Assembly: GCA_947631565.1 (NCBI GenBank)
Contig: CANRLV010000020.1
Span: forward strand, 1-36,936
Length of the DNA: 36,936 nucleotides
Reading direction: 5' to 3'
Source of the DNA: an uncultured Gemmiger sp.
GTDB taxonomy: Bacteria > Bacillota > Clostridia > Oscillospirales > Ruminococcaceae
Part shown: positions 21,309 to 36,936 of the stretch, piece after piece
How positions within the stretch are numbered: the stretch's first letter is position 1
How the letters are laid out: each line of letters starts with the position of its first letter
Made by a program: the position numbers and the translations under genes
The notes under the pieces: model-generated
Databases searched by the model: none
The model's input: only the letters and a program-made list of their open reading frames with translations
What the model was told of the DNA's origin: nothing

Positions 21309-24300
21309 TTACAGGATCTTGCTGAACACCTTGCGGATGTAGATGATATCGCTCAGGCCCGGCCACTCACCTCCGGTCCCGGTCGGCTGGGCCGCCTCCA
21401 GATATTCATTTTCCAGCCTCAAGATCTTTACCATCGCCTTGCGGGTCTGGATCACGTCTGTCAATCCGACCAGCCCGTCGCCGTCGATATCGCAGGGGAC
21501 CATTGCCCTGACCTGTTCCCCCCGCACCGTGAGGATACAGCCTGTGCCCACATAGGCGCCTCCGGCCAGCGGCGTACCGTCCTTGTCCGCCGCATTCAAT
21601 TTATTGTTCTCGCCTTCGCCGAACAAGGCCTGCAGGGCATCCACACTCGTCCCGGCCTTCACGCCGTACAGAATGCCTTTCTCGACGGTGTAGCCATCCG
21701 GCAGAGACTGTTCCCAATGCGCATACAGCGTCATATCTTTACTGAACACTGTCTGGGCCGTTACCGGCTCGCCGCCCTTGGCCGCTGTGTACCAGCCAAG
21801 GAACGTGCACCCCGTCAGCGTGGGCTCGGGCAGCGACGTGACCTTGCCGTCGGCATCCGTCACCAGCATCATCTCGCCCGGAAGGACGCCACCCGCCGGT
21901 TCCAGCGCAAGCGCATACCCTTCCCGGTGCAGTACCGCTTCGACCGTGACATCGGTATCCGGCACCGTGACGGTCGTGTCATACGCCGTCTTGTCGGCAA
22001 AGATATCCTGACCGTTGCTGCTCCGCCAGCCTTCAAACGTAAACCCTGCCGGAACGTAGGCATAAACCTCGATGCGTTCCCCCGGATACGCCTGTGCCGC
22101 CAGCTCCATATTGCCGCTGATGATCATGTTGCCCGACTTCATCGTGACCGTCCGCTTCTCCTGCTGCGGCCGGTAAGTGTCCAGATCCGAGGCAAACGGT
22201 TCTCCGCCCCGCTCGCTCAGCGTATAGCTCACATCGTCCAGCGTCTTGCCGTTCACGCTGCTGTCATAGGTTTTGTTGGCCGTCAACGCGACGTCGGCAA
22301 AGTAAACATCGCGGATCCCGTTCTCCTGCTCGTCATATTCGGTGACCTGCACATCCATCGCGCCGGTGTCGGTGCCGACGTATTGGATATCATACAACTC
22401 CTCGTCGTAGAAATAGAAGGTTTTCCTGTCGCCCTCCACCACGACGCTGATATCACCGTTGGAATAGGCCTTTCCGTCGACGACATAGGCCGCCAGCTTT
22501 TGGCCGCGGTCATAGACGTACACATCGACCGGGCAGGCCACTTTGTACTTCTTCTTCATTCTCTCAAGGCTTTCGGCAAGGATATACTCATAATCTTCAT
22601 ATAGACCTGAATTTGGATAGTCTTCCTCAAGAAAGAAGATCCAGTTCACCGTCACGCTCTCATGTGCTTCATCGTAATCTTGCTGGATGTTTTCAATCGC
22701 CTTTTTAACTTTGGCCCGCTTGTCGCCGGAAGTACTGTCAAAGTGCTGGGCGATCTTGCTGACCAGCGCATTATCCAGCACATCGATAAACTTTTCTGCG
22801 CTCTTGCAGTCCTCCCGGCGCGCGGCGAACACCACATCAACCGCGCTCAAATACGCCTCTGCGCTCTCACTGCTGCCGTTCCGGCGGAAGCTGTTTGCCA
22901 GCGCTTCACAGCTTTTTTCTGCCAGGTCCTCAACGTCCAAGACGGCACACATAACGGCATACTGTTCCTGAAGGCTGTCAGCGCCAAAAAATGTCTCGGA
23001 AACGAATTTGCTGCTCTTATAAGCTGCAAACAGGATGTCCAGATACGGATAGGCCCGGTTGACCACCTGCTTGACATTTTTCCAGAGCTCGCCGGCCACA
23101 TACTTGCCGACCGCTTTGCCGATAACTTTTACTTCGCCATTGACGATCTCCTGCACGACCTCTTCGGCGCTCGCGTCAATGATCTTGATGCAGTCCTGCA
23201 GCGCCATACGCAGGTATTCGTTGTCGGCCGGGCACTGGGCGTACATCGTGCGCACGACCTCTTTGAGCGAATCCGACAGGTTGGCCAGTGCACAGTTGCT
23301 CTCCATCATTTCGACCAGCTCGGCCCCGCAGTCCACAATGTCCATGACCGTATCGAAATACTGAAATGCCTTTTCGACCTTGCCAAGGGGGGAGCGCTGC
23401 AAGAAAAGCTCTTCACATTTGCTGCGCATCTCGTCCTTCTGCTTTTTGTCCATCGCTTTGAACGCAGTCCGGTCAGAGATATCTATGTTGAGCTTGAGCT
23501 TGGCCCATGTCTTGAGCTGCGAATAGATGTCGCTGCCCGTCTTGGCAACATCGATGAAACCATTGGACACCGATATATCGGTCGCAGACTCCAGGACCTT
23601 CAGGATAATGGCCGAATAAACGTCCTTGGGCATGAACGCGAATTCGCCAAGGCTGGTGGGATTATCCAGTGTGTCCATCGCGGTCGTTGCCGCCACCCAA
23701 ATATTGGTACCGGTGGCAAAGCCATTGTTCTGCAGTTCCTGTACATACAGGCTGGACGGCGTCTGGACGGCCCATTCGTTTTTCATGATGCCGGCAAACG
23801 GCCGCTCCTCATCCAAAAGCAGGTTGGCATGGTAGACCTGAATGTCAAAGAAATCGCTCCCCACTGTGACCTGACAGTAGGCGCTGCGTCCGTCGGCCGT
23901 GGATACGGTGATGAGCGACCGCCCCGGCGCGATGCCGTTCAGCGTCACCTGTGAGGTAAGGCGCCCTGCTGTTTCTTCGCCGGACAGTCCTGGCGTGACG
24001 GTGACACTGTTCGTGTTGCTGCTGTTCCAGGTAAGAGCGGTGCCGTTCAGGCTGCCGCTGTGTTCCACCGTCGCCGTCGCCGTCACCTTGCCGCCGTCTT
24101 TGATCGCGGCGGAGGTGATATCCAGCGATATCTGCCCGTCAAACGGCATATCGCCGTCCTCCTCGGGCAGGACGCTTTGGTAGTGCCAGGCAACTTGGTT
24201 TAAGAACAATTCGGTCCTGTAAGTCTCTAACGAGATTTTCTTCCTGTCTTCAGCCGTACCGCCGTAATAGATATCCTTCAGTGCCCTGTAGTCAAATGCG

Positions 24301-25466
24301 CCATCCACACCGTCATCGATATAGGCCACACTGAGCGGGATAGAAACTTTCGTGAGATTTGAACATTTTGCAAATGCGTCATCCGATATAACACGTACGC
24401 CCTCTTCTATGGCGACACGTTTCAAATTTTCACAGGAAAAAAATGCCCGGTCACCGATACGTTCCACACTGCCGGGGATCCTGACCTCTGTCAGGGCATT
24501 GCAGTTTGCGAAAGAGGAATCGCATAAATATTCCACTCCATCCGGAATATTGATGCTTTTCAAGCTTGTACAACCTCCAAACGTGCCAAGACCAGACGAC
24601 AAACCGATATTGACCAGGCTGTTCGGCAGGCTTACCTCCTGCAGCTGCTCACACCCCATAAACGCTCCGCCGCCGATCGAGATGACGCCGTTGGGAATGA
24701 CGACTTTGGTAAGCTTCTTACAGTTTTGAAATACTCTACCTCCACCGATAACATCCCGTGTTCCGATGCTGAGCACACGGTGTCCGTCAATAAAGGCCGG
24801 GATCCGGAGCTCGCCCTCCACATCTTTATTACAATCCATCAGGATCACATCGTCATTGTTATCCAGATAGTAGGAGAGCACGGCGTTCGTGCCGGGCACC
24901 GCATAGGTTTCCCACTCTGACTCAGAAGGTGCCGGCCCTGATCCCCCGGTTTGTTTTTCGACTGTCAGCGACGCGTCGTACACTGGCGCAGTATATTCCT
25001 CCGCCGTTTTTGCTTCTGCGGTGTTTTCTTCCGGCAACGAGGATACTGTTGGTTCTGCAGGCATATCCGGCACCGGGGCCGCAGTCGGCGTTGGCGATGC
25101 CAAAGGCGCCGGCGTGGCAGTCTGTTCCGGCGCAGCCGTCGGCTCGGCGGACGGCTCCGCATCGGGCTCTGGCATCGGCGTTTGTGCTGGGGCCGGCTCT
25201 TCGGTCATTTCCGGCCCCGCTTCGGGCAGGGGCGGGCTCTCCGGGGCAGGGGCGGGCGTGGGGTCTGCCTGCGGTGTGGGTGCGGCCAGGTCTTCGCCGG
25301 GATTCTCTGCATCCGCACCGGTTTGCTCGGTTTCCGACTCGCCGGAAACAAGCGCATCCCCCGCCGGGCCGGACTTACCGTCCGCCGCCAGTGCCGCCGC
25401 CGGCACGTACAGCAGATTTGCGCTTAACATTACCGCCAACAGCAAGGCCGTCAGCCGCCTTTTCAT
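21309..25466 (-). CDS. Secreted LRR_5 protein with Ig-like, InlB-type and dockerin-like domains
   Basis: A 1385-residue secreted protein from ATG 25466, 27 bases after the transglutaminase gene. Signal peptide ~1-27 (MKRRLTALLLAVMLSANLLY). Pro/Glu/Thr-rich linker ~30-185. LRR_5 (BspA-like) repeats ~190-440 with the form FxxCxxLxxVxIPxxVxxI. Big_2-type Ig domain ~445-545. A long alpha-helical region of unknown fold ~550-1000. A beta module starting PVDVYVYDRGQKLAAYVVDG (~1010-1150). An InlB/Flg_new repeat with TGCTFLGWYTAAKGGEPVTA. An X-type module with GGAYVGTGCIL, and a C-terminal dockerin-like domain. The first loop is DIDGDGLVGLTD; the second (TGTGGEWPGLSD) lacks most calcium ligands. Expected to be held at the cell surface by a cohesin partner and to mediate binding to host or dietary polymers. 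Confidence 0.85.
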   Translation of the reverse strand: MKRRLTALLLAVMLSANLLYVPAAALAADGKSGPAGDALVSGESETEQTGADAENPGEDLAAPTPQADPTPAPAPESPPLPEAGPEMTEEPAPAQTPMPEPDAEPSAEPTAAPEQTATPAPLASPTPTAAPVPDMPAEPTVSSLPEENTAEAKTAEEYTAPVYDASLTVEKQTGGSGPAPSESEWETYAVPGTNAVLSYYLDNNDDVILMDCNKDVEGELRIPAFIDGHRVLSIGTRDVIGGGRVFQNCKKLTKVVIPNGVISIGGGAFMGCEQLQEVSLPNSLVNIGLSSGLGTFGGCTSLKSINIPDGVEYLCDSSFANCNALTEVRIPGSVERIGDRAFFSCENLKRVAIEEGVRVISDDAFAKCSNLTKVSIPLSVAYIDDGVDGAFDYRALKDIYYGGTAEDRKKISLETYRTELFLNQVAWHYQSVLPEEDGDMPFDGQISLDITSAAIKDGGKVTATATVEHSGSLNGTALTWNSSNTNSVTVTPGLSGEETAGRLTSQVTLNGIAPGRSLITVSTADGRSAYCQVTVGSDFFDIQVYHANLLLDEERPFAGIMKNEWAVQTPSSLYVQELQNNGFATGTNIWVAATTAMDTLDNPTSLGEFAFMPKDVYSAIILKVLESATDISVSNGFIDVAKTGSDIYSQLKTWAKLKLNIDISDRTAFKAMDKKQKDEMRSKCEELFLQRSPLGKVEKAFQYFDTVMDIVDCGAELVEMMESNCALANLSDSLKEVVRTMYAQCPADNEYLRMALQDCIKIIDASAEEVVQEIVNGEVKVIGKAVGKYVAGELWKNVKQVVNRAYPYLDILFAAYKSSKFVSETFFGADSLQEQYAVMCAVLDVEDLAEKSCEALANSFRRNGSSESAEAYLSAVDVVFAARREDCKSAEKFIDVLDNALVSKIAQHFDSTSGDKRAKVKKAIENIQQDYDEAHESVTVNWIFFLEEDYPNSGLYEDYEYILAESLERMKKKYKVACPVDVYVYDRGQKLAAYVVDGKAYSNGDISVVVEGDRKTFYFYDEELYDIQYVGTDTGAMDVQVTEYDEQENGIRDVYFADVALTANKTYDSSVNGKTLDDVSYTLSERGGEPFASDLDTYRPQQEKRTVTMKSGNMIISGNMELAAQAYPGERIEVYAYVPAGFTFEGWRSSNGQDIFADKTAYDTTVTVPDTDVTVEAVLHREGYALALEPAGGVLPGEMMLVTDADGKVTSLPEPTLTGCTFLGWYTAAKGGEPVTAQTVFSKDMTLYAHWEQSLPDGYTVEKGILYGVKAGTSVDALQALFGEGENNKLNAADKDGTPLAGGAYVGTGCILTVRGEQVRAMVPCDIDGDGLVGLTDVIQTRKAMVKILRLENEYLEAAQPTGTGGEWPGLSDIIYIRKVFSKIL

Positions 25467-25493
25467 TTTGCTTCACGCTCCTTGTTTTGTGCT

Positions 25494-27254
25494 TTACAGG
25501 ATTTTGCTGAACACCTTGCGGATGTAGATGATATCGCTCAGGCCCGGCCGGGTATCTTCGGTCCCGGTCGGCTGGGCCGCCTCCAGATATTCCTCCTCCA
25601 GCTTCAAGATCTTTACCATCGCCTTGCGGGTCTGGACCACGTCCGTCAGCCCCACCTGCCCGTCGCCGTCGACATCGCAGGGGACCACCACGGTCAGGGC
25701 CTGCTCCCGGCCCGGGAGCGTTACTTTGCAGCCGGTGCCTACATTCTGGCCGTCTGTCAGCGGAACATTGTTTTTATCGGTGATCACTACCTCGCCTGCC
25801 TGTTGCAGTTGGCTGCGCAGCTCTTCCGGCGAGGTTTCCTTTGTAACGCCCAGCAATCGGTTGCTGTCTTCTTCGATCTCGAACTGGTCCGGCAGCTCCG
25901 GCTCGGGTTCGCCTTCCTGGGGGAGCGGACAGGTAATCAGCGTGCAGTCCCTGCTGGTATTGCCTACCGAGAGATACAAAATGCCGCCGCTCTGCATGCA
26001 GCCATAAATATATTTATTCGGGGCGTCACAGGTATAAACGGTTCGGATCGTTTCTTCCGGCAGGGTGATTTGATACACATTCCGATTATCATTATAGTAC
26101 AGTCGATCCCGCTCGGCGGAGAGCATGGCAGATTCATTGGAAATATTCGTTTCCGCCACTTTCGTTACGGTGCCATCCGCTGCCTGCCGAACAACGCTGC
26201 CGGCAGAAATATAATAAACGCTGCCGTTATTGAAAACCAGACTGCTCGTAACATTGCTCCATAGCTGACCGCTGTCGTACTTTGTATCCCCGCAAGTCAC
26301 CGCGGCTTTCCAGTCATGGTGTTTTTCCTCTGACCAGCCGGCCGTCTTCATTGCGTCATCACTGAGCAAAAAGAAGACATGCAGCGCCCGGCCGGGTTTG
26401 TCGGCGGTGGGGTCGTCCCATGTGACATCCACATGGTACCATTGCCCGTCCAACTGGACCGCGTTCCATGTGTGGTCCATCTCATCGCTGTCAACATTGA
26501 CGACCGGGACCCCGCTGCGCTGGAGCAGGTCGGTATAGGCCAGCATATAGCCCTGGCAGACGGCTCTTTGATCCACCAGCGCATTGTATGCATTGTAATT
26601 GTGGTGCTCCGTGTCATAGGTGCAGTGCTGGGCAAGATAATCGTGCAGGACCAGCGCCTTCTGGCAGGAGTCCAGCCCCTGCGGCAGGCTTGACAGCACT
26701 TTCTTGATGGCAGCTTCATAAATATTTATATCTTCCTGCGTATACGTCAGATCATAACGCGGCTTTATGGCAACGACCGCATCCCCCCTGTAAGAATAGC
26801 GAAAATATCCATCCACATAAAAAAGCTGCGGATTTGCGTTCAAAAAAGTAAAATACAGCGTTTCGATCTCTGTTGTGGGGATGTTGTAAGCAGAGAGGTC
26901 AATGACCTCCTGCCAATTTTCAAGACCGTTGCGTATCGTTTGCCATTCGGGGGAACCGGTGCCCGGCATGGTATAGGCCTCAGCCGTGAGGGCAAGCGGG
27001 GTGGGGCGGTCGGTGGATACGCTGCCGAACTGGTAAAGACAGTTTGTAACGTCCGCCGCTTCTTCCCGGATCTCGGCACTGTCATCGGCCGGGGCCTCCG
27101 CCGCCGGCTCCGTCGGCTGCGGAAGGGCTGCTTCTTCCTGCACGGCTGCCGCCGCACCGTCCGCTGGCAGAGTCTCCGCCGCCGCCGCGGGCACAGCAAA
27201 AAGCATAAGCATCGCTGCGAAACAAGCCCATCCATAAAACCATTTGTGCTTCAC
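25494..27254 (-). CDS. Secreted transglutaminase/protease-like protein with dockerin-like tail
   Basis: A 586-residue protein starting at GTG 27254; the GTGA overlaps the stop of the cohesin-like gene, and AGGAGG precedes it. Signal peptide ~1-26. A papain-like transglutaminase domain (~125-285) has Cys233 (AVCQGYMLAYTDLL), His261 (DHTWNAVQLDGQWY) and Asp276 (HVDVTWDDP), the complete triad of the bacterial transglutaminase-like superfamily. Residues ~315-440 look like a beta-propeller-like or DUF5050 segment (SVYYISAGSVVRQ, DRLYYNDNRNVYQ). The X-module (~455-525) contains NRLLGVTKETSPEELRSQLQ and GQNVGTGCKVTL. The dockerin-like end has loop DVDGDGQVGLTD. Family members cleave, cross-link or deamidate proteins; which one applies cannot be read from sequence. 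Translation coupling to an anchor protein suggests display at the cell surface. Confidence 0.87.
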   Translation of the reverse strand: MKHKWFYGWACFAAMLMLFAVPAAAAETLPADGAAAAVQEEAALPQPTEPAAEAPADDSAEIREEAADVTNCLYQFGSVSTDRPTPLALTAEAYTMPGTGSPEWQTIRNGLENWQEVIDLSAYNIPTTEIETLYFTFLNANPQLFYVDGYFRYSYRGDAVVAIKPRYDLTYTQEDINIYEAAIKKVLSSLPQGLDSCQKALVLHDYLAQHCTYDTEHHNYNAYNALVDQRAVCQGYMLAYTDLLQRSGVPVVNVDSDEMDHTWNAVQLDGQWYHVDVTWDDPTADKPGRALHVFFLLSDDAMKTAGWSEEKHHDWKAAVTCGDTKYDSGQLWSNVTSSLVFNNGSVYYISAGSVVRQAADGTVTKVAETNISNESAMLSAERDRLYYNDNRNVYQITLPEETIRTVYTCDAPNKYIYGCMQSGGILYLSVGNTSRDCTLITCPLPQEGEPEPELPDQFEIEEDSNRLLGVTKETSPEELRSQLQQAGEVVITDKNNVPLTDGQNVGTGCKVTLPGREQALTVVVPCDVDGDGQVGLTDVVQTRKAMVKILKLEEEYLEAAQPTGTEDTRPGLSDIIYIRKVFSKIL

Positions 27255-28255
27255 TTTCTTTTCCTCCTTTTATGTACGAAAACCGCCGCTGTAAGCAGCA
27301 CAAGGCCGATAAGCGCGGTCCCTGCTGCCCGTTTTATCAACATTTGCCGCTGCCACGCTTCGCGGGCAGGATGCTGTTCTGTTTCCGGTCCCTGTGTCGC
27401 CCCGCGCAACGGCTGTGGGGGTACACTCTCACTGTCGCCCGTTTCATCGCCCGTACCGCTTATGGCTTCGCCGCCTGTACCGTCTTCGGTTTTGCTGCCG
27501 GCCTCACTGCCTGTGCCGCCGCTGTCCGCCGGCGGCGCGCCCGTATCGGGTCGGGCGGTCGGCTGCGTTTGGCCGCCGCTGCCGCTCCCTGCGGGAGAGG
27601 GCGTCTGCGCCGGCGGCACATCCTGCTCACCGGCTTCGGCGGCGGGGGGCTCCGGTATCGGTTCGGCCGGCGGGATCTCCGCCGGATCAAGCTCCTGTTT
27701 TTCCGCCCCGGCCTCGGAATAATGGGGCACCGGTGTGGGTTCGACTACCGCGGTGCCGGTCACCGTCACCGACCCCACTATTACTTCGGTATCCAGTTGG
27801 AGCACATCATTGCCCTGTGCGCCGACCGTTTCCTTTTCCGCACAAAGCAGGGGCGGCCCGCTGCTCTCTTTGAGGGCCTTTACCGTCACCTGTGCCCATT
27901 CGGTGCCGGCCGGTATCGGCGCGGCGCCGTTGCCGTCATCAAGATACAAAAGGACCATGCGGTCGCCCAAATAGCTGTACGAAAGCTCGGATTCTGCTAT
28001 CCCGCTGCCTGCCTGAACGGAATCGAACTGATAGCCGTCGGCAAAAGTCATGGTAAGCCTCGCCCCCGCCAGCGGCAGTGTACACTGCTCCACCGTCACG
28101 CTTAACGTGACCGTTTGCCCGGTCTGTACCTCTGTTTGCTGCGGCTGGAACAGCAGCTGTGCCGTGCCGTTCGCCGCAGCGGCCGGCAGAGCGGACCATA
28201 CGCCAAGTGCCAAAAATGCGCTCGTCAAGGCGCCTAAAAGCCTTTTTTGGACCAT
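27251..28255 (-). CDS. Membrane-anchored protein with a cohesin-like domain
   Basis: A 334-residue protein from ATG 28255 behind GGGAGC. Signal peptide 1-28 (FLALGVWSALPAAAANG). Residues ~30-165 have the pattern of a cohesin: EVQTGQTVTLSVTVEQCTLP, LAGARLTMTFADGYQFDSVQ, LGDRMVLLYLDDGNGAAPIP, AGTEWAQVTVKAL. A Pro/Glu/Gly/Thr-rich linker follows (~170-295), then a membrane helix (~309-328, GTALIGLVLLTAAVFV) and a basic tail HKRRKRK. No LPxTG motif is present, so it is held by the membrane helix. The next gene, encoding a dockerin-like protein, overlaps it by four bases. I infer that this protein tethers dockerin-bearing partners to the membrane. A generic Ig-like fold is the alternative. Confidence 0.72.
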   Translation of the reverse strand: MVQKRLLGALTSAFLALGVWSALPAAAANGTAQLLFQPQQTEVQTGQTVTLSVTVEQCTLPLAGARLTMTFADGYQFDSVQAGSGIAESELSYSYLGDRMVLLYLDDGNGAAPIPAGTEWAQVTVKALKESSGPPLLCAEKETVGAQGNDVLQLDTEVIVGSVTVTGTAVVEPTPVPHYSEAGAEKQELDPAEIPPAEPIPEPPAAEAGEQDVPPAQTPSPAGSGSGGQTQPTARPDTGAPPADSGGTGSEAGSKTEDGTGGEAISGTGDETGDSESVPPQPLRGATQGPETEQHPAREAWQRQMLIKRAAGTALIGLVLLTAAVFVHKRRKRK

Positions 28256-28295
28256 ACTGTTTTGCTCCCGTTCTGTCCCCGTAAACGCCGAATCA

Positions 28296-28343
28296 AAAAG
28301 CGGAAGAAACGAACCAGCTTTTTGCTTCGCTTCTTCCGCTTTA
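28296..28343 (-). terminator. Intercistronic hairpin between the two anchor genes
   Basis: On the minus strand AAAGCGGAAGAAGCGAA pairs with TTCGTTTCTTCCGCTTTTTG (one mismatch) and ends in a short T run. It lies between the stalk gene stop (28355) and the next start (28255). It may stop part of the transcripts or protect the upstream mRNA. Confidence 0.65.
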
Positions 28344-28354
28344 TTGGATCGGCT

Positions 28355-30997
28355 TTACTCTTTGCGCTTATAAAGTTTTACGCAGCATGCAGCCAGCATC
28401 AACGCACTTGCCAGGAAGGTGACCCACACAAACCCGGTGTTGGAATCATCTGCCGTGCGCGGGATCGTTGTCACGGCAACAGGCGCAGGTGCGGGAGCAG
28501 GCGTCGGCGCAGGCTTGACTTGCTGTGTCTGCGCGTTTTTGTTTGCCTCCTCCTGGCGGCGGCGCTCTTCCTCTTCCTTCGCTTTCCGATCCGCCTCTTC
28601 TTTCTCCTTGCGAAGCTTCTCAATGGTGCTTACGGCGTTCGTAAAGTCTTTATATACGTCCTCGGTCAATGCATCCGACAGCTCTTCATCCGTCATGTGA
28701 TATGTATCCCGCAGCGTTTTGACCTTATCGGCAATGCTCTGGACGGCACCTTCATTCTCAAGCGTGACGGTTTTCGGCAATTTTTTGACGGCGGCGGTCA
28801 CCTCTGCAAGCAGCTTTTCGGCTTCCTGCTGCATCTCTTCTGCTTTGTTGTAGTTCGGGAACGCCTCGGCGAACTCATCGGGATTCATGTTATACTTGCT
28901 GTTGCTGCCAAGGTCTCTCATTTTGCCCTGGATCTCTTCATAAGGCTTCATATCTCCGTTATACTTCCACGTTTCCAGCGCTTTGTTCATTTCTTGCCTG
29001 CAATCTTCGATCTCTTTTTCCATCGCCTTGACGGCCGCCTCGTACGTTTCGAGGTAGGTATATACACCCTCCTTCTTGAGCGGACAGTCTCTGGATTCCA
29101 GATCCTCAATCTCCTCCGGCAGCTCCTTCAGAACCGCTTTGTCGGCGTATGTGACGTCATTCTCGGCATGTGCTTTCATCTCGTCGACGAAATCGCTCAT
29201 CCGCGTTTTCAGGGCCGCAACGCCGTTCCGGCAGGCATCGATTTTTTTCTGCTCCTCCGCGGTAAACGTGTCGCCGAGCGCCTCTACCCGTTTCTGCAGC
29301 TTGTCACATTCCTCATCGTCGTAGTAATGTGCATCCGCTTCTCCGTGCAGATTTTCCACATCTTCGGTCAACTCCGCGCGTTTTATCTCTACCTCAGCCA
29401 GAGCGTCGACGGCGCCCTTCAGCGCGGTCATCTGCACGTCCTCCAGCGTTTTGCCTTTGTCGGCGAATTTCGTATTGAACTTTTCCACAAGCCCGTTGAT
29501 ATCGGCCTTGTCCGCCATCGTTATCGTTCTCTTGTCGTAGTTCTTTGCATTGACTTCGGCAACAAACTTATTCCACTCCTCCACGAGAGCAGCGTACTGG
29601 GCGTTTATGTCGTTCATCGTCGTTTGCGCATCGCCAAGCACTTTTGCCGTATTATCCTCATACGTTTCACTCAGCGTCTTGATCCGGCCATTCAGTTTCT
29701 CTATTCTATCCTCGTAGTCAAAGCTCATGCCGGTCTTCCCGATATCACCCGCCAAGGTGCCGATGTCCTTCTGGAGCGACCCGATCTCTGCGATGTCTCC
29801 CTCGACGGTACTGTAGATCTCCATGTATTCATCGTAACCGAACTCATTGCCGGGGACACTGGCCGCTACCAAGCGGTCGACGTCCGGCTTGAGCGCCACG
29901 GCCTCCACAAATATCTCGTCCGGCGCGGCACCGCTCGCTTTGAGACCCTGCAGAGCCTGAACTTTTCCCTTTACAGTATCGATCAAGCTCTTTATTTTGC
30001 CTGCTGTTTCCTTTGCGCTCTCCAGATTGGTCGTATGCAGCTTGCCCTGGGCCGTTGGATCGACCGCATTTTTCAACCTCTCTGCCTCTTCAATATCTTT
30101 GTCCGTCTCACCATACACATAGGACCCGGTCAAAGCATCCAGCGCCTCTTGTGCCGCGTTGAAGGCAGCGGCATCGATCGTAATGGACACCCTGGCCGTC
30201 ATTCCGGCCCGGTCCGTGGCCTCGATGTTATAGGTAACAACGGTATTGCCCGCGGTCAGGTTGTCGGGATCGCCGCCCTGAACCACCACGATCGTGCAGG
30301 GGCCGTTTTTGTCGCTCGCGCTCACCTTGAGCGGCTGAGAATAATAGGTCTGCCGCTCGGACTCCATGGCAGTGCCATCCACCAAAACCTGGGGGGGCAC
30401 GGTGTCAAACGCCGCATCCTTGTAGGGATTTACGATCGAGTCTTCCATCTTTGCCTTAACGGCCGTTCCTAATGTACCGTCACCGCCAAAGCGGAAATCG
30501 ATCGATTCCGGCTGGATGATAAGGCCTTTTTCGATGCCGTCAGGCAGTTCCGATTTTACCTGCATATAGAAGGTATACAGCAGGTGCCTTCCCTGCGGCG
30601 CTTCAGGCGGGTCGTCATAGAGATTATTGAATTGACCGGAGATTCTGCGAGCATTATCCTCCGCAGAGTATAGCGGCGGATCCTTATCGTCCAAAACATC
30701 CTCATAATCCGGCCCTACGCCGCCTTTATTATTCCGGCCCTCTTTCTGCGGCTCCAATACGGTCGGATCGAAGTCAAAGTTAACACTGCCGCCCCAAAAA
30801 TAACCGCTCGGCGGCGTGGCATACACAGAGACCTTGATCTTGTCGTCGGCATGCAGAAACTCCGGTTGACCTTCGCCATCATACTCTACGATATACTCGA
30901 GCTTTACAACGGGCGGTTCCTCCGCAAAGGCTGCCACCGGGAACATGGCCAGCGCCATTGCGAGGGCACAGACAAGAGAAATCAGACGCGTTTTCAT
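28355..30997 (-). CDS. Surface stalk protein: cohesin-like head, long helical rod, C-terminal cell-wall/membrane anchor
   Basis: An 880-residue protein from ATG 30997 with AAGGAGG upstream. Signal peptide 1-25 (LALAMFPVAAFAEE). Residues ~30-195 look like a cohesin-type beta sandwich: HADDKIKVSVYATPPSGYFW, GGSVNFDFDPTVLEP, HLLYTFYMQVKSELPDG. An Ig-like domain follows (~200-285: PPQVLVDGTAMESE, TYNIEATDRAGMTARVSITI). Residues ~290-800 are almost wholly alpha-helical, with heptad-like stretches, ending in a charged coiled coil (EKEEADRKAKEEEERRRQEE). A Pro/Ala linker leads to TTIPRTADDSNTG, a membrane helix and KLYKRKE. IPRTADDS resembles the sortase motif IPKTGDxS with G changed to A. I infer an extended rod that projects a dockerin-binding head. 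No dockerin is seen in the protein itself. Confidence 0.75.
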   Translation of the reverse strand: MKTRLISLVCALAMALAMFPVAAFAEEPPVVKLEYIVEYDGEGQPEFLHADDKIKVSVYATPPSGYFWGGSVNFDFDPTVLEPQKEGRNNKGGVGPDYEDVLDDKDPPLYSAEDNARRISGQFNNLYDDPPEAPQGRHLLYTFYMQVKSELPDGIEKGLIIQPESIDFRFGGDGTLGTAVKAKMEDSIVNPYKDAAFDTVPPQVLVDGTAMESERQTYYSQPLKVSASDKNGPCTIVVVQGGDPDNLTAGNTVVTYNIEATDRAGMTARVSITIDAAAFNAAQEALDALTGSYVYGETDKDIEEAERLKNAVDPTAQGKLHTTNLESAKETAGKIKSLIDTVKGKVQALQGLKASGAAPDEIFVEAVALKPDVDRLVAASVPGNEFGYDEYMEIYSTVEGDIAEIGSLQKDIGTLAGDIGKTGMSFDYEDRIEKLNGRIKTLSETYEDNTAKVLGDAQTTMNDINAQYAALVEEWNKFVAEVNAKNYDKRTITMADKADINGLVEKFNTKFADKGKTLEDVQMTALKGAVDALAEVEIKRAELTEDVENLHGEADAHYYDDEECDKLQKRVEALGDTFTAEEQKKIDACRNGVAALKTRMSDFVDEMKAHAENDVTYADKAVLKELPEEIEDLESRDCPLKKEGVYTYLETYEAAVKAMEKEIEDCRQEMNKALETWKYNGDMKPYEEIQGKMRDLGSNSKYNMNPDEFAEAFPNYNKAEEMQQEAEKLLAEVTAAVKKLPKTVTLENEGAVQSIADKVKTLRDTYHMTDEELSDALTEDVYKDFTNAVSTIEKLRKEKEEADRKAKEEEERRRQEEANKNAQTQQVKPAPTPAPAPAPVAVTTIPRTADDSNTGFVWVTFLASALMLAACCVKLYKRKE

Positions 30998-31093: not shown

Positions 31094-31143
31094 AAAGAGT
31101 ATCTAGAGACCAATTTTAGCCCTTTTTCGGCCAGGCCACAAGA

Positions 31144-31193
31144 TGCGGCATTTGATGCGGCGGCCCGTAATTTTATCATGCCGCACTTTTTTG
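31144..31193 (+). terminator. Possible leader terminator upstream of the regulator
   Basis: TGCGGCAT (31144-31151) pairs with ATGCCGCA (31178-31185), followed by CTTTTTTGG. It lies between the promoter and the regulator start. The 26-base loop makes it weaker than a typical terminator; attenuation is possible. Confidence 0.35.
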
Positions 31194-31289
31194 GCAAATT
31201 GCTGTTCTTCCCATCGCGTTTTTGGTGAAAATTGTGCTTTTTTGTGCCGCGTTGTGGCAAAAAGCCAACGTGACAAGGAGAAATACCAT

Positions 31290-32677
31290 ATGTTGGATAT
31301 CGGACGGGAAATTGAAAATCTTTTGAATGAATGCAGTGAAAGCGTTGCCGAGATCGCGCGCCGCTCCCATATCGACCGCTCTACTTTATATAAAATCGTG
31401 AACGGACAGCGCCTGCCCACCGCGGAGCAGCTGGACGCGCTGATGCACAGCCTGCGTGTGACGCCCGGGCAGCGGCGGACCCTTTTGGAATGTGCGGAAG
31501 CGCTGCGCCTTGGCCCGGACGAGCAGCGGCAAAATGCACAGACAGAGGAGCTGCTCGGCGTTCTTTTGAACGCTGACCGTGCCGTTAAATCACCCCCCCC
31601 CGCGAGGAAATTTTGTGTTCTGACGAAATTTTGTATGATCCTTCGGCCATTTCAAGCCTGCTGTACGGGCTTTTGCGCCGGCACGCCCGGCATACCCCCG
31701 AACAGCCCGTGATGCTCTCGGGCGGGCATCTGCCGCTGCTGGCGGACTGCGTGCAGCAGGCCTTTGCCGGCAATGCGGCCCCCGTTCCGGTATGGCAGAT
31801 CCTGTATTATGTAAAAAACACATCGACCCCACACAGCCGGGCCCAAAATTTGCACGCCTTTGCAGACTGTGTGCCGCTGCTTTTGTGCCGCGGCGCACAA
31901 TACCAGGCGCGCGTGTGTTACCGGCAGGCCGCGGCGGACGGTCTCTTTTCGCTGCTGCCCCATTTTGTACTTTTGGCGGACCGGGCGCTCTTTTTCAATG
32001 CAGACGGTCAGGCGGCCGTGTATGAAGCGGATCCCGAAACCGTAGGGCTGCTGCGGCGCGAGTTCAGCAAACAGTTTTTTGCCCAGGCCAGCCTGCGGGC
32101 CCTGCACCGTGTGGATGAGGCTCCGGCCGTTGTGCGCCGGCGTTTGGCCGCTGACTGTACCGCCCGGTTTTCGGTCCGGGCCGCGCCGCCGGCGCTCTCG
32201 CTGCTGTCTGCCGAAGCGCAGAAAAGCCTTGCCGGCGAGCTGCCGGCGCTCAGCGATGCCCTGCCGGCTGCCGGACCGGACCTTGACATGCATTATTATT
32301 TCAGTGAAGCAGGCTTTTGGCACTTTATCCGTACCGGGGCCGTGCCGGATCTGCTGCCCGCACTTCTGCCGCCGCAGATTCGCAGGAAGGTTTTGGCCGC
32401 CATGACCGCCGCCGTCCGGCGCGGAAATCCCTCACTGTGTATGCTGTCCGTTCCCTTTTTGTCTGCACCGGACAGCATGCGCTACATGGAGATCTTTGAA
32501 GGGCGGGGGGTCCTGTTCGGTCTGGGGGAGGCCGGTCTCCGGGTCGAATACCTGCTGGAGGAGAGTACCATCACCGCTATGCTGGTGAAATATTTTATCA
32601 AACTGGAAAGCAGCAGCAAAGCCTGTGATGCCGAATATTTGCTGCACCTGACAGAGCTTTCGCAGGCGGACCTGTAA
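31290..32677 (+). pseudogene. XRE-type HTH regulator interrupted at a run of nine C residues
   Basis: ATG 31290 with AAGGAG nine bases upstream opens a frame with an N-terminal HTH: SVAEIARRSHIDRSTLYKIV, NGQRLPTAEQLDALMHSLRV. The frame runs through C9 (31593-31601) and ends uselessly at 31712. The neighbouring frame is open from the same place (CGC at 31601, REEILCSDEILYDPSAISSL) to TAA 32677 and encodes a ~350-residue alpha/beta region with FADCVPLLLCRGAQYQARVC, DLDMHYYFSEAGFWHF and LLEESTITAMLVKYFIKL. A C10 or C7 tract would give one 462- or 461-residue protein. I therefore read it as one gene, off in this sequence. A TTG at 31613 with GAGG upstream could start the second half alone. The C-terminal domain is not one I recognise. 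It lies divergent to the stalk gene. Confidence 0.7.
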
Positions 32678-32701
32678 ATGCCTTTCCGGGCAATGTTGAA
32701 A

Positions 32702-32731
32702 GGAGCGCTGTATCTTGCGATACAACGCTCC
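32702..32731. repeat. Interspersed hairpin repeat, copy 2
   Basis: GGAGCGCTGTAT/ATACAACGCTCC with loop CTTGCG, followed by CTTTTGTTG on the plus strand. Near-identical to 19075-19104. It probably also ends the regulator transcript. Confidence 0.65.
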
Positions 32732-32831
32732 CTTTTGTTGTTGGGGGCAGGGCGCAGGGCCGGCCTTGCCGGTTTGCCTGCACCGCTGTTTTGGCAGCGA
32801 GCCGGATGCGGGGATAGCGGCTCCTTCCTTT

Positions 32832-34808
32832 TTACAGGATCTTGCTGAACACCTTGCGGATGTAGATGATATCACTCAGGCCCGGCCTTCCATCTTCGGT
32901 CCCGCTCGGCTGGGCCGCCTGCAGATATACACCATCCAGCTTCAGGATATTTACCATCGCCTTGCGGGTCTGGACCACGTCCGTCAGCCCCACCTGCCCG
33001 TCGCCGTCGACATCGCAGGGGACCACCACGGTCAAATCCTGACCGTTCAGCCTGACCCGGCTGCCGGTGCCGATATACGCACCCGTTTGGTTGGTGATCT
33101 CCAGCGGCGTTTCCGAGCAAAAGAACGCCTGCAGATCGCTGGCCGTCGTTTCAGCGGCAACACCCCTCAAGGTATTCCCTTCCTGCCGAATCACGATGGG
33201 GCGGAACGCAAAACCGTATTTTTGTGCGTATGCCTGTGCGGTAGAGCCCTCCATACCCGAGATGCTGATCCCCTTATAACCCGGACCAAAGGCATATTGG
33301 TCGGCGGGGATCCCGCATTGCGGGTTCTTGATGACGATGTTGGAAAGCTTATCGCAATAAGCAAAGTTGTTGCTGCTGATGCTTTCCAGGCTTGCCGGCA
33401 AAACGATTGACGTCAGCTGCGGGCAGCCGCTGAAGATGGACCCGCCCGTTATGGCTGTGACGCCCTCGCCAAGGATAACGCTTTTTAAATTCCGGCACAT
33501 ATAAAACGTGCCCCATTTCTCCAATGTGCGGACACTGCCCGGGACAGCGACCTCCTCGATCGTGCTGTAGCCAAACGTATAATACCCGATCTTTGTAACG
33601 GTTTTTGGTATGCTTACCCTGGTCACATTGCTGTACATAAATGCTTCGTCTGCAATTTCTGTTACTCCCTCGGGGATGGTGCAGGTGCCGGAGCGCATGG
33701 CCGGATATTGCAGAAGCCTGGTTTTTTGCTTATTGTACAGCACGCCATCGGCAGAAGAATACGCGCTGTTTGCCGGCGAAACGTTGATGGCGGTCACCGG
33801 CGCACGGTAAAATGCGGACTCGTCAATAGCCGTAACCGTGTCAGGAATGGTAACCGTTCTGGCATATTCATTGTGGGTGAACGCATTGCCGCCGATCTCC
33901 TTCACGCCGGAAGGAATGGCCACATCGGCTGTCTGCTTCTGGCAGGCAAGCAGAATGCCGTTGACAACACAAAAGTCTCCCTGTGCCTGCTGCCACGGCG
34001 TACCGTCGAAATCGTCAACGCCAAAGGTCCTGACGCTGCCGGGGATGGAGATCTCCTGCAGGCTGCTGCAGTTTTGGAACACATAATGCCCCAATCCCCG
34101 TACGCTGGAAGGGATCGAGATGCTTTTCAGGCTTGTGCAGTTCTGAAAAGAAAAGCAAACAATCCATGTCACAGTAGAGGGGATGGTCACCTTTTGCAGA
34201 TTTTTGCAGTCATGAAAGGCGCCCTTGCCGATATCGGTAACACCGTTTTGGATCACGATCTCCCGAATATCGTTCAGATAATTCTCCCATGGGCGGATCT
34301 TTGACTGCGCTGTACTCCACATATCGCCCATATCGCCGGTCCCGCTGATGGTCAGCACACCGTCCGTGCTCAGCGACCAGCGCAGGTTGCTGCCGTTCCA
34401 GTTGTATTCGCTGCTGCCGTTGGCACCGAATATACCGGAAGCACGTTCGGAGATAGGCATGATCTCATTTTCCGCTGCCGCGGCCGGGGCATCCGGCTGA
34501 GGAAGCCGACCCTCCGCATCGTTCCCGGTCTGCCCGGATCCCCGTTCGGCGTTTTCTGCCGTTGTTTCCTCTTCTGCGGTGATTTCGGTTTCCGTTTCGG
34601 GCTCCGGCGCCGGGGAACTGTCTTGTGCGGGCGCCGTACTTTTTACATCTGCATTTTCTTCGCCCTCGGGGGCCGTTTCCGGGAATTCTTCAAAAAGGAC
34701 CGTCTCCGACGGCTCTGCCGGCAGCCGTTCATCCTGCGCAAAGGCCGGCAAGGCCATGTTCAAGCCCATGGCTGCACACAGCAGCAAGGCTGTCATGCGC
34801 TTTTTCAT
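32832..34808 (-). CDS. Secreted LRR_5 protein with dockerin-like tail
   Basis: A 658-residue protein from ATG 34808. Signal peptide 1-25 (MTALLLCAAMGLNMALPAFA). Acidic linker ~27-140 rich in Glu, Pro and Ala. YNWNGSNLRWSLSTDGVLTI and GTGDMGDM (~145-175) match the short beta module that often opens BspA-like proteins. LRR_5 repeats follow to ~540 (GKGAFHDCKNLQKVTIPSTV and similar). Then an X-module (NTLRGVAAETTASDLQAFF, GAYIGTGSRVRL) and the dockerin-like end: first loop DVDGDGQVGLTD, second TGTED replaced by SGTEDGRPGLSD. This copy is the most divergent of the four tails. The gene follows the next LRR gene by 28 bases in the same operon, with an AAGGAGG site just after that stop. Predicted surface adhesin or binding protein displayed through a cohesin. 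Confidence 0.87.
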   Translation of the reverse strand: MKKRMTALLLCAAMGLNMALPAFAQDERLPAEPSETVLFEEFPETAPEGEENADVKSTAPAQDSSPAPEPETETEITAEEETTAENAERGSGQTGNDAEGRLPQPDAPAAAAENEIMPISERASGIFGANGSSEYNWNGSNLRWSLSTDGVLTISGTGDMGDMWSTAQSKIRPWENYLNDIREIVIQNGVTDIGKGAFHDCKNLQKVTIPSTVTWIVCFSFQNCTSLKSISIPSSVRGLGHYVFQNCSSLQEISIPGSVRTFGVDDFDGTPWQQAQGDFCVVNGILLACQKQTADVAIPSGVKEIGGNAFTHNEYARTVTIPDTVTAIDESAFYRAPVTAINVSPANSAYSSADGVLYNKQKTRLLQYPAMRSGTCTIPEGVTEIADEAFMYSNVTRVSIPKTVTKIGYYTFGYSTIEEVAVPGSVRTLEKWGTFYMCRNLKSVILGEGVTAITGGSIFSGCPQLTSIVLPASLESISSNNFAYCDKLSNIVIKNPQCGIPADQYAFGPGYKGISISGMEGSTAQAYAQKYGFAFRPIVIRQEGNTLRGVAAETTASDLQAFFCSETPLEITNQTGAYIGTGSRVRLNGQDLTVVVPCDVDGDGQVGLTDVVQTRKAMVNILKLDGVYLQAAQPSGTEDGRPGLSDIIYIRKVFSKIL

Positions 34809-34814
34809 TTTTGC

Positions 34815-35240
34815 TTCATCCTCCTTGTTTTGTGCTTCACAGGATCTTGCTGAACACCTTGCGGATGTAGATGATATCGCTCAGGCCCGGCCACTCATCT
34901 TCGGTCCCGGTCGGCTGGGCCGCCTCCAGATATTCCTCCTCCAGCTTCAAGATCTTTACCATCGCCTTGCGCGTCTGGACCACGTCCGTCAGCCCCACCA
35001 GCCCGTCACCGTCGATATCGCAGGGGACCACCACGGTCAGGGCCTGTTCCCGGCCCGGAAGCGTCACCTTGCAGCCGGTGCCTACATTCTGGCCGTCTGT
35101 CAGCGGAACATTGTTTTTATCGGTGATCACTACCTCGCCTGCCTGTTGCAGTTGGCTGCGCAGCTCTTCCGGCGAGGTCTCCTTTGTAACGCCCAGCAAT
35201 CGGTTGCTGTCTTCTTCGATCTCGAACTGCTCCGGCAGCT
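34815..35240 (-). repeat. Shared 3' cassette: X-module, dockerin-like end and following ribosome binding site (copy also at 25480-25903)
   Basis: The ~400 bases coding for the X-module, dockerin-like domain and the post-stop AGCACAAAACAAGGAG are nearly identical between 34815-35240 and 25480-25903, with only a few mismatches in the 160 bases I compared in detail. Shorter dockerin-only copies are at 21285-21500 and 32832-33010. The neighbouring upstream domains are unrelated, so the cassette has been copied as a unit. Confidence 0.75.
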
Positions 35241-36936
35241 CCTGCTCCGTCGGCGGGGTGCCCACCGTCACCTCACAGCTCGCGCTCACGTCCCCGACCT
35301 GTACCGTAACAGCGGTGCGGGCATTGTTCTTGACGGCCTTGACCAGACCCGCTGCGCTCACGGTGGCAACGGTGCCGTCGACCGGGGTCCAGGTGACCTC
35401 ATCGGTGAAGTTTTCGGGGGTGACGGTAAGGGCCATCTGCGCTGTGCCGTTGTGGTTCAGCGCGACGGCCGTCGGCGCCAGCTTGACGCCGGTCGCCTTG
35501 ACAAGACGCTCCCTGAATGTATACCTGTTGGTCTCCGCGTAGGTCTGCGCGTAGGTACCGCCGACGCCGTAGATGACGAGGCAGTCCGGGTAGCTGAAGG
35601 AGGTCGTATCGATTTTGCTCGTTCCGCGGGGGATGGTCACATCCACCAGCGTGGTGCAGTTTTTGAACGCGTTGGCGCCGATGGTCGTGACATTGTAGGG
35701 GATGACGATCCTGGCCAGGCTGTCACAATGCTCGAAGGCATACGTCGGGATGGACGGCAGAGCGGTGCTGAGGTGCATATCGGTGAGCGCATCGCAATCC
35801 TGGAAAGCATAGCTACCCAAAGAGGTAACGCAGTCGGGCATCGTAAAGCTTGTCAGGCCGTCACAGTTTTGGAACGCATAACTGCCAAGCGTGGTCACCG
35901 TGCCCGGAAGCTCCACCGCGGTGAGCCCATTGCAACCGCGGAACGCATAAGAATCGATGCGTTCCAGCGCCGGGCTCCACTCCACGGTTTTGAGGGTCGT
36001 GCAGCCGTCAAAGGCCGATTCATAAATTCTGGTAACGGTGTCGGGCAGGCGGATGTCTGTCAGGGCCTTACAGTTTTGGAACGTTTTGGTCGGCACGGTT
36101 TTTAATGTGGCCGGAAGCTGCGCGCTTTCCAGCGCCGTGCACCCGGAAAAGACCCAGTCCCCCAAGGTCACAACGGAATCCGGTACCTTTATGCTGGTAA
36201 GGCCTGTGCAGTCGTTAAAAGCACTATCATCAATCGTTGTCAGCGAGTTGGGAAACGACACGTTATTTAATTGCGGGCATTTCTTAAATGCCGAATTCTC
36301 TATTGTTGTCAGGCTGCTGCCGAATTTGACCTGTGACAAATTTTCACAGTACGCAAAGGCATACGAATCGATCGTCGTGACCTTGTCCGGGATCGTTACC
36401 GAAGCAAGTCCACTGCCGGCAAACAAACCTCGCCCGATCTTTGTCGTTCCCTCGGCAAAGCTCACATTGCGCAAAGAGCTGCATCCCGCAAATGGCCCCT
36501 TGGTGCTGTCCATCGTGGATTCAACATCCTTGGGCAGCGATACCGTCGTCAGGCTTGTGCAATCCGCAAAGGCTCTATAGTCTATTTTTTTCAGATACGG
36601 CGGCAAATCAACCCGGGAGAGACCTGTGCAGTCTTCAAAGGCGTATGCTTCAATCGTTGTCAACGAACTGGGCAGATCCAATCCCTTTAATTTTGTGCAG
36701 TTTCCAAAAGCTCCGTTCTTTATCGTTGTCAGGCTGCTGCCAAACTTGACCTGTGTCAGATCCGCGCAATACCAAAATGCATACGAATCAATCGTCGTGA
36801 CCGTGTCCGGAATCGTTATCGAAACAAGCCCGCTGCTGGCAAACAAACCTCGCCCGATTTTTGTCGTTCCCTCGGCAAAGCTCACATTGCGCAAAGAGCT
36901 GCATCCCGCAAATGGCCCCTTGGTGCTGTCCATCGT
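34837..36936 (-). CDS. LRR_5 protein with Big_2 and dockerin-like domains, 5' end outside window
   Basis: At least 699 residues; the frame is open to the right edge, so the start and signal peptide are not seen. About 20 LRR_5 repeats of ~23 residues fill the first ~455 residues. They include a 140-residue (420-base) tandem duplication beginning with MDSTKGPFAGCSSLRNVSFA. A Big_2 domain follows (ATGVKLAPTAVALNHNGTAQ, EVTWTPVDGTVATVSAAGLV). The X-module is almost identical to that of the transglutaminase protein (NRLLGVTKETSPEELRSQLQ), and the dockerin-like end has loop DIDGDGLVGLTD. LRR_5 proteins of gut bacteria are typically surface adhesins. It belongs to the same operon as the gene at 34808. 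Confidence 0.88.
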   Translation of the reverse strand, partial: TMDSTKGPFAGCSSLRNVSFAEGTTKIGRGLFASSGLVSITIPDTVTTIDSYAFWYCADLTQVKFGSSLTTIKNGAFGNCTKLKGLDLPSSLTTIEAYAFEDCTGLSRVDLPPYLKKIDYRAFADCTSLTTVSLPKDVESTMDSTKGPFAGCSSLRNVSFAEGTTKIGRGLFAGSGLASVTIPDKVTTIDSYAFAYCENLSQVKFGSSLTTIENSAFKKCPQLNNVSFPNSLTTIDDSAFNDCTGLTSIKVPDSVVTLGDWVFSGCTALESAQLPATLKTVPTKTFQNCKALTDIRLPDTVTRIYESAFDGCTTLKTVEWSPALERIDSYAFRGCNGLTAVELPGTVTTLGSYAFQNCDGLTSFTMPDCVTSLGSYAFQDCDALTDMHLSTALPSIPTYAFEHCDSLARIVIPYNVTTIGANAFKNCTTLVDVTIPRGTSKIDTTSFSYPDCLVIYGVGGTYAQTYAETNRYTFRERLVKATGVKLAPTAVALNHNGTAQMALTVTPENFTDEVTWTPVDGTVATVSAAGLVKAVKNNARTAVTVQVGDVSASCEVTVGTPPTEQELPEQFEIEEDSNRLLGVTKETSPEELRSQLQQAGEVVITDKNNVPLTDGQNVGTGCKVTLPGREQALTVVVPCDIDGDGLVGLTDVVQTRKAMVKILKLEEEYLEAAQPTGTEDEWPGLSDIIYIRKVFSKIL

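What the first reader, a model, noticed from the sequence alone, without database searches (positions are those of the whole stretch)
21309..36936. A cohesin/dockerin-like surface system whose cargo is LRR proteins and a transglutaminase
Seen: two anchored secreted proteins with cohesin-like beta-sandwich heads (27251-28255, 28355-30997) and four secreted proteins ending in the same X-module plus dockerin-like domain (loop D-x-D-G-D-G-x-V-G-L-T-D) in one locus. Known: cohesin-dockerin pairs build cellulosomes, and Ruminococcus flavefaciens dockerin proteins include some non-enzymatic and protease-like members. Inference: this is a small dedicated surface complex that displays adhesin-like LRR proteins and a protein-modifying enzyme, not a glycan-degrading cellulosome; no glycosidase is in the locus.
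Basis: partly seen in the sequence, partly recalled or inferred. Interest (0 to 1): 0.9.

Follow-up and report, generated by a model that had tools for sequence, protein, structure and literature searches.

The report
Dedicated cohesin–dockerin surface display locus
An unnamed bacterium carries a compact gene cluster in which two surface anchors appear built to clip on secreted adhesin-like proteins and a transglutaminase-like enzyme through the plug-and-socket used by cellulose-degrading machines, although none of these proteins looks like a sugar-degrading enzyme.

Summary
Four proteins in 21309-36936 end in one X-module plus dockerin-like tail, the only four found in the 89%-complete genome. 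A tail profile matches solved dockerins (best E 1.7e-6). CohA is a borderline Pfam cohesin. CohB has no Pfam cohesin hit, but its family aligns to cohesins (hhalign 95%, controls at most 0.5%). CohA, CohB and related tails recur in a second species of the genus and in another genus, each with a divergent HTH regulator beside CohB. Binding is inferred; both structure models failed. R. flavefaciens already has LRR-, transglutaminase- and one-loop dockerins, the last binding an anchored cohesin. So this is a new variant of a known kind: a stand-alone, two-anchor version with no sign of a cellulosome.

The parts
34837..36936 (-). LRR3: BspA-type LRR protein, Big_2 domain, C-terminal X-module and dockerin (tail 34840-35229); N-terminus beyond the contig end
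   Evidence: (LRR_5 E 5.2e-182; Big_2 1.1e-8)
32832..34808 (-). LRR2: BspA-type LRR protein with signal-peptide-like start, X-module and dockerin tail (32835-33200)
   Evidence: (LRR_5 E 5.7e-59)
31291..32677 (+). HTH (Cro/C1-type) regulator divergent from CohB, read in two frames (ORFs 31143-31712 and 31613-32677)
   Evidence: both pieces match the G137 regulator, 2e-19 and 3e-19; both match the G214 regulator, 6e-12 and 7e-9; HTH_3 E 1.1e-7 in the first piece, no Pfam match in the second
28355..30997 (-). CohB: signal-peptide-like start, cohesin-like head (30407-30925), HYR-like stretch (Pfam HYR only E 0.17), long repeat region that looks helical by eye, sortase-like C-terminus
   Evidence: start codon at 30997 preceded by AAGGAGG
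28287..28353 (-). Strong hairpin (terminator-like) between CohB and CohA
   Evidence: -44.8 kcal/mol, z -6.3, 0 of 200 shuffles as stable; a U-run follows the inner stem
27251..28255 (-). CohA: signal-peptide-like start, single cohesin-type head (27740-28180), Pro/Gly/Thr-rich linker, hydrophobic anchor with KRRKRK tail
   Evidence: PF00963 E 5.1e-5; over cut-off
25494..27254 (-). TG: transglutaminase-like protein (core about 26427-26669) with X-module and dockerin tail (25497-25886); GTG start overlaps the CohA stop
   Evidence: (Transglut_core E 6.7e-8)
21309..25466 (-). LRR1: LRR / InlB B-repeat protein with signal-peptide-like start, X-module and dockerin tail (21312-21683)
   Evidence: (LRR_5 9.7e-36, Flg_new 3e-14)

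Best explanation
This is a dedicated, non-cellulosomal cohesin-dockerin display system. CohA (membrane-anchored, short) and CohB (probably sortase-linked, on a long stalk) present cohesin-type heads. LRR adhesin-like proteins and a transglutaminase-like enzyme are secreted with no anchor of their own and are held at the surface when their X-module/dockerin tail docks on one or both heads. Shown: the genes, the dockerin homology, the cohesin-type profiles, the co-occurrence of anchors and related tails in three genomes, and a tail signature seen in these loci and not in the comparison modules. Inferred: binding, its calcium dependence, which head takes which face, adhesion as the purpose, and control of CohB by the divergent HTH regulator. 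The tail probably docks through helices that keep R-[K/R] in both repeats, stabilised by one calcium in loop 1 instead of two.
For: Dockerin: profile A4 (the four window tails plus three from relatives) finds solved dockerins first (2ccl, 1ohz; E 1.7e-6, 5.1e-6) and modules in 56 of 396 family genomes at E<=1e-5. Cohesin: CohA Pfam hit; hhalign to a 30-cohesin profile, CohA family 82% and CohB family 95%, against at most 1.4% and 0.5% in 30 control runs (1 reversed, 29 column-shuffled). Co-occurrence: a search with the window's CohA alone hits G000 and G214 of 35 genus genomes; a CohB profile made from the window and G137 hits the same two of the 35, G214 at E 4e-31; G137 of another genus has CohA, CohB and an X-dockerin protein in one row. 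Signature: R-[K/R] in 14 of 14 repeats of these loci, 0 of 44 elsewhere. Neighbour rule: in G001 and G196, with one PF00963 hit and one X-dockerin hit each at the thresholds used, the two genes are adjacent. Precedent: both R. flavefaciens group-2 dockerins tested, a group in which only the first repeat was recognised, one of them on an LRR protein, bind the anchored ScaE cohesin.
Against: No binding test and no usable structure: X-module/dockerin model pLDDT 62, residues 84-120 (most of the dockerin) under 50; CohB head model pLDDT 48; no fold match with E<=0.001. CohB here scores 15.7 bits on the cohesin HMM only as two stretches; its best single stretch (6.8) is below the best of 300 shuffles (7.1). 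CohA of G137 and G214 (4.6 and 4.9) are below it too and have no Pfam cohesin hit at E<=1. The PF00963 search gave no match in the own genome. The tails stay below the Pfam Dockerin_1 cut-off (12.9 and 12.3 of 22.9 bits for two, no match for the other two). Loop 2 is degenerate. Profiles A3 and A4 contain the three CohA and seven tails, so their strong scores there are by construction; with the window-only tail profile, tails of G115 (5e-18), which has no strong CohA or CohB, rank above that of G137 (1e-15). The comparison set for the signature is one genome in 20 of 22 modules, and 8 of the 14 repeats are from near-identical window modules. In R. flavefaciens most LRR dockerins did not interact in the array.
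Confidence: 0.62

Rival explanations
1. The tails are dockerin relics or generic cell-surface modules that no longer dock, and the two anchored proteins are independent adhesins with Ig-like heads that sit in the same cluster.
For: Loop 2 has lost its ligands in 7 of 7 modules; CohA and CohB match Pfam Cohesin only marginally or not at all; no structure.
Against: The last 17 residues are identical in the four proteins here; R-[K/R] is kept in both helices across two genera; CohA and CohB hit the same 2 of 35 genus genomes, both with X-dockerin cargo.
Confidence: 0.2
2. The locus is one branch of a larger cellulosome-like complex whose scaffoldins and enzymes are elsewhere in the genome or in the missing 11%.
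For: The genome is a 140-contig draft, 89% complete, and the contig ends inside LRR3. First-look filters can miss divergent modules (disagree on the own genome).
Against: One Pfam cohesin and four dockerin tails found in all, none over the Dockerin_1 cut-off and none on an enzyme of polysaccharide breakdown; in G214 (90% complete) and G137 (96%) the tail profile also finds only the locus cargo, 2 and 1.
Confidence: 0.1
3. The transglutaminase-like enzyme is the point of the system: docked beside the LRR proteins it cross-links or trims surface proteins, so the complex is a surface-remodelling device rather than an adhesion device.
For: A transglutaminase-like protein with an X-dockerin is next to CohA both here and in G214; Cys, His and Asp of the recalled catalytic triad are present in both (read by eye from the translations; Pfam Transglut_core is matched only by the window's protein).
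Against: None was seen next to CohA in G137; many bacterial proteins of this superfamily are peptidases (recalled); no substrate known.
Confidence: 0.08

Closest known systems
Ruminococcus flavefaciens group 4b dockerin operon (ORF01263-01267) and group 2 LRR-Doc
   Same: Head-to-tail transglutaminase-like-Doc and LRR-Doc genes with conserved C-terminal parts and variable N-terminal parts; group 2 dockerins show only the first calcium repeat, and the LRR-Doc ZP_06144651 binds the ScaE and ScaH cohesins (PMC2930009: passages and section 11; PMC5301203: passages with parts of Table 1)
   Different: There they are a few among 223 dockerin proteins of a cellulosome; here they are all that was found, next to two anchors and a regulator; sequence relation to groups 2 or 4b not tested
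R. flavefaciens CttA / ScaE (XDoc with single anchored cohesin)
   Same: Secreted adhesin with C-terminal X-module plus dockerin held by a single-cohesin surface anchor (PMC5301203 passages)
   Different: CttA binds cellulose by CBMs and ScaE is sortase-anchored; CohA looks membrane-anchored, and a second, stalked anchor is present
Limousia mucinolysome
   Same: Cellulosome-like complex with a purpose other than cellulose (PMC12997984: abstract and one passage)
   Different: Multi-enzyme glycan-degrading system; no glycosidase cargo here
   Same: One X-dockerin surface protein next to one cohesin protein with a C-terminal hydrophobic anchor
   Different: Dockerins with a canonical or near-canonical second loop and K at the signature position; no CohB match

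Membership tests
Cohesin (PF00963) | Match to the Pfam profile | tested here: inconclusive
   CohA 23.9 bits and 26.5 bits against a cut-off of 24.1, no match; CohB none; CohA of G137 and G214 and CohB of G137 none at E<=1
Cohesin (PF00963) | Profile-profile similarity to known cohesins above controls | tested here: met
   82% (CohA family, 3 sequences) and 95% (CohB family, 2 or 3 sequences); best of 30 control runs 1.4% and 0.5%
Cohesin (PF00963) | Nine-stranded jelly-roll fold | tested here: inconclusive
   CohB head model pLDDT 48, no fold match with E<=0.001; CohA not modelled
Dockerin type I (PF00404) | Match to the Pfam profile over its cut-off | tested here: not met
   12.9 and 12.3 bits against 22.9 for two tails, none for the other two; the session's own profile does match solved dockerins
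Dockerin type I (PF00404) | Two F-hand repeats with intact calcium loops | tested here: not met
   Loop 1 intact in 6 of 7 modules of the three loci, loop 2 in 0 of 7
Dockerin type I (PF00404) | Internal symmetry of the two recognition helices | tested here: met
   5 to 11 of 16 residues identical between helix 1 and helix 3; shuffles of helix 3 reach this 0 of 5000 for six modules, 19 of 5000 for the seventh
Dockerin type I (PF00404) | Calcium-dependent binding to a cohesin | not testable with these tools
   Needs purified domains
Cellulosome | Dockerin-bearing polysaccharide-degrading enzymes and multi-cohesin scaffoldin | tested here: not met
   Four dockerin proteins (three LRR, one transglutaminase-like) and one Pfam cohesin found in the genome
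BspA-type LRR proteins (PF13306) | LRR_5 repeats | tested here: met
   E 9.7e-36, 5.7e-59 and 5.2e-182
Transglutaminase-like superfamily (PF01841) | Profile match over cut-off | tested here: met
   33.2 bits, cut-off 23

The most novel reading that the evidence does not exclude
The one-calcium dockerin is a two-faced clamp: one helix docks on membrane-anchored CohA and the other on wall-anchored, stalked CohB, so each cargo protein is handed from membrane to wall or tied to both at once. Stand-alone cohesin-dockerin adhesion loci of this kind, with no polysaccharide-degrading role, would then be a general display system in this bacterial family, and X-dockerin/cohesin neighbours in other genera would be its simpler forms.
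Probability: 0.15. Interest if true: 0.78.

Novelty: new variant of a known kind. Interest (0 to 1): 0.6.

Why it matters
Cohesin-dockerin pairs are known mainly from glycan-degrading complexes. In R. flavefaciens, LRR and transglutaminase dockerin proteins are numerous and described as unrelated to traditional cellulosome activities; most LRR dockerins did not interact in the microarray, although the table parts I saw list LRR-Doc entries with partners (Doc 4, 7, 18, 27) (PMC5301203 passages). A locus that holds only such cargo plus two anchors makes the role of such proteins testable with six genes, and offers a candidate one-calcium docking pair with a distinct recognition signature.

Tried and rejected
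Structure prediction of the four-row X-module/dockerin alignment and of the single CohB head gave poor models, and fold searches with them found nothing with E<=0.001. No head was modelled with a tail. Sequence search of the PDB with the CohA profile gave no match; with the CohB profile only ScaB adaptor 3l8q at E 0.27. Viral-contig scans for CohA, the tail and CohB found no relative. Plasmids held neither CohA nor the LRR2 tail. The genome-contig scan gave two weak loci (goat-rectum Clostridia MAG, Prevotellaceae MAG) whose tails were only printed. G216 (same genus) has a giant protein with a degenerate X-dockerin tail followed by a secreted protein scoring 20 bits on the cohesin HMM (best stretch 10.4) but with no Pfam cohesin hit, and G224 a short X-dockerin-like protein; neither has the signature by eye, and both were left out of the signature and loop counts. 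G196 has a second, weak CohA-profile match on another contig (E 4e-4), not followed. GC of the locus half of the window is 0.56 against 0.58 for the rest; four other stretches of the genome have 0.59-0.70, too few to argue transfer.

Literature: terms tried were dockerin with LRR, transglutaminase and cohesin (5 of 5 listed), non-cellulosomal cohesin or dockerin (47, 18 of 18), cohesin-dockerin with Faecalibacterium (51, 14 of 14), with adhesin and gut terms (52, 20 of 110 listed), BspA (93, none), single-binding or degenerate dockerin (94, 3 of 3), MAG scaffoldins (95, 9 of 9). None of the titles and abstract beginnings that I saw described such a stand-alone locus; the library holds openly licensed papers only. 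Peer et al. 2009 on non-cellulosomal modules was not held, so it was not read.
Full report
Anatomy. The window is one whole contig (C20) of a 2.47-Mb, 140-contig genome, 89.2% complete. On the minus strand, in order of transcription: LRR3 (cut by the contig end) and LRR2, 28 bases apart; then, past a plus-strand regulator, CohB; then CohA, whose stop overlaps the GTG start of TG; then LRR1 27 bases on. A very stable hairpin with a U-run lies between CohB and CohA (-44.8 kcal/mol, z -6.3), so CohB is probably a separate unit from CohA-TG-LRR1. CohB starts at 30997 behind AAGGAGG.

Tails. All four cargo proteins end in one module of about 120-130 residues: an X-module, then a dockerin-like domain. 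A profile of these four (A1) finds only these four places in the genome at E<=1, and Dockerin_1 reaches 12.9 and 12.3 bits at two of them, under its cut-off, and nothing at the other two. With three further modules from relatives (profile A4) the best PDB matches are C. thermocellum dockerins (E 1.7e-6 and 5.1e-6); calmodulins follow from about 1e-3 on. The modules of TG and LRR3 are 378 of 393 bases alike, and the likeness stops about 410 bases upstream of the stop codon; a 300-base repeat that begins just downstream of the stops is present at all four genes (74-95% to the reference copy). Cargo fronts therefore seem to be exchanged upstream of a homogenised tail cassette (inference).

One calcium loop, two helices. 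By a strict 12-residue pattern, two loops are seen in 13 of 22 comparison modules (20 from G115, one each from G196 and G001), one loop in the other 9, and two loops in 0 of 7 modules of the CohA/CohB loci. Most of those 9 have a near-canonical second loop in register; at its first ligand position the comparison modules have Asp in 21 of 22, these loci in 0 of 7 (counted by eye). One of the seven, the giant cargo of G214, lacks a canonical loop 1 as well. Yet the helix after each loop is alike within a module (5 to 11 of 16 residues), and the fifth and sixth residues after the loop are R-[K/R] in 14 of 14 repeats against 0 of 44 in the 22 comparison modules, which have K first. Eight of the 14 come from the four near-identical window modules, and the comparison is dominated by one genome.

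Heads. CohA is at the Pfam Cohesin threshold (23.9 bits, 26.5, cut-off 24.1). On a profile built from 30 PF00963 heads of the family, CohB of G137 scores 26.7 bits, CohB of G214 18.2, CohB here 15.7 (two stretches, the better 6.8) and CohA here 13.6; the best of 300 shuffles is 7.1, non-cohesin proteins of the loci reach at most 2.8, and CohA of G214 and G137 are below the shuffle mark at 4.9 and 4.6. Family against family, hhalign gives 82% for CohA (3 sequences) and 95% for CohB (94.6% with 3 sequences, 95.3% with 2), with the best of 30 control runs at 1.4% and 0.5%; the tail alignment against the same profile gives 0.4%. So CohB is cohesin-like mainly through its relatives, CohA on Pfam plus profile evidence carried mostly by the window's own sequence. 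Structure prediction did not help.

Anchors. CohB: signal-peptide-like start, head, HYR-like stretch (Pfam E 0.17), repeats that look helical, then IPRTAD and a hydrophobic stretch; its relatives end in IPATGD (G214) and SPSTGD (G137). Sortase matches lie at four places elsewhere in the genome. CohA and its relatives end in a hydrophobic stretch and a basic tail with no LPXTG by eye; the NCBIfam LPXTG_anchor model scores CohA 14.3 bits, under its cut-off of 15.9, over the hydrophobic part only.

Relatives. A search of 35 genomes of the genus with the window's CohA found 2: this one and G214 (39% identity, E 4e-30). The CohA profile, which contains the sequences of G000, G214 and G137, found strong matches in 2 of 396 family genomes (this one and G137; six others at 1.5e-5 to 4.4e-4) and in 1 of 394 genomes of the order (this one). 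G214 has a giant X-dockerin protein, CohA and a transglutaminase-like X-dockerin protein in a row, and on another contig CohB with the divergent regulator. G137 has regulator, CohB, giant X-dockerin protein and CohA in a row. The giant proteins are 35% identical over 2392 residues; apart from the tail, TG here and TG of G214 gave no alignment at the threshold (one best stretch per pair shown). CohB was sought in 45 chosen genomes (the 35 of the genus and 10 others) with a profile of the window and G137: strong in G000, G137 and G214, weak in G115 (1e-6, outside the head part), none in the other 41. Tail profile A4 contains the tails of the three genomes, so its strong scores there (E below 1e-40) are by construction; two other genomes of the genus have weak tail matches without CohA (G224, G216). 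With the window-only profile A1, tails were found in 4 of 197 family genomes: G000, G115 (20 places, best 5e-18), G137 (1e-15) and G196 (5e-9); so by overall score the tail of G137 is not closer than those of G115, and what sets these loci apart is the loop and helix pattern.

Simpler pairs. In G001 and G196, genomes with one PF00963 hit each at E<=0.001 and one X-dockerin hit each at E<=1e-5, the two genes are adjacent, and the cohesin protein (over the Pfam cut-off in both) has a C-terminal hydrophobic stretch. G115 has a sortase-type protein with a cohesin-like head (18.9 bits) beside a transmembrane-type cohesin protein (44.1 bits). Cohesin next to X-dockerin cargo is thus a recurring arrangement in this family.

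Caution on counts. The first look of the genome search can miss divergent heads: the own genome is a hit but has no match with the same family. Absences are therefore weak evidence.

Mechanism. Most likely the cargo is secreted, docks through its tail on CohA, CohB or both, and is so displayed; the regulator may control CohB. Steps shown: gene content, homology, co-occurrence, signature. Steps inferred: binding, calcium, partner choice, purpose.

Known background. R. flavefaciens FD-1 has 28 LRR and 10 transglutaminase modules on dockerin proteins, a probable operon of four transglutaminase-like-Doc genes and one LRR-Doc gene (group 4b), and group 2 dockerins in which only the first calcium repeat was recognised (PMC2930009: passages and section 11). 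A later binding study reports that both group 2 dockerins tested recognised ScaE and ScaH, that most LRR dockerins did not interact in the microarray, and lists LRR-Doc entries with partners in its table (Doc 4, 7, 18, 27) (PMC5301203: passages). Cell-surface dockerins with two cohesin faces, of different or identical specificity, are known (PMC5141474: abstract and passages). What is new here, as far as the searches show, is the stand-alone locus with its own two anchors and regulator, and the signature.

Noticed in passing
window 8809-12213, minus strand: A GH2-type ORF whose first ~630 residues do not match GH2 while the TIM barrel and C-terminal domains do; it looks 5'-truncated, with a 1000-codon ORF on the opposite strand (9202-12204). 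It has no dockerin match.
   Followed up: partly
window 12446-13963, plus strand: Phage-type integrase gene between the GH2 fragment and a two-component system, about 7 kb from the locus; no attachment site was looked for.
   Followed up: no
window 31143-32677, plus strand: The HTH regulator reads in two overlapping frames, while the homologues in G137 and G214 are single ORFs; either a real frameshift or an assembly error.
   Followed up: partly
window 36266-36936: A 251-base direct repeat (86% alike, spacing 420) inside the LRR3 coding region, cut by the contig end.
   Followed up: no
L121 1-9771 (G216, same genus): An LRR-like ORF (by eye) and a giant multi-domain ORF in the same frame separated by one stop codon; the giant ORF ends in a degenerate X-dockerin tail and is followed by a secreted protein with a weak cohesin score.
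   Followed up: partly
phage record MT836518.1, 103-432: A human-faecal contig deposited as a phage encodes a relative of the LRR2 tail (31% identity, E 1e-7).
   Followed up: no
L014, L017-L019, L023 (G115:C38): A tandem array of five proteins of about 1300 residues, each ending in an X-dockerin, in a genome with 20 such matches.
   Followed up: no
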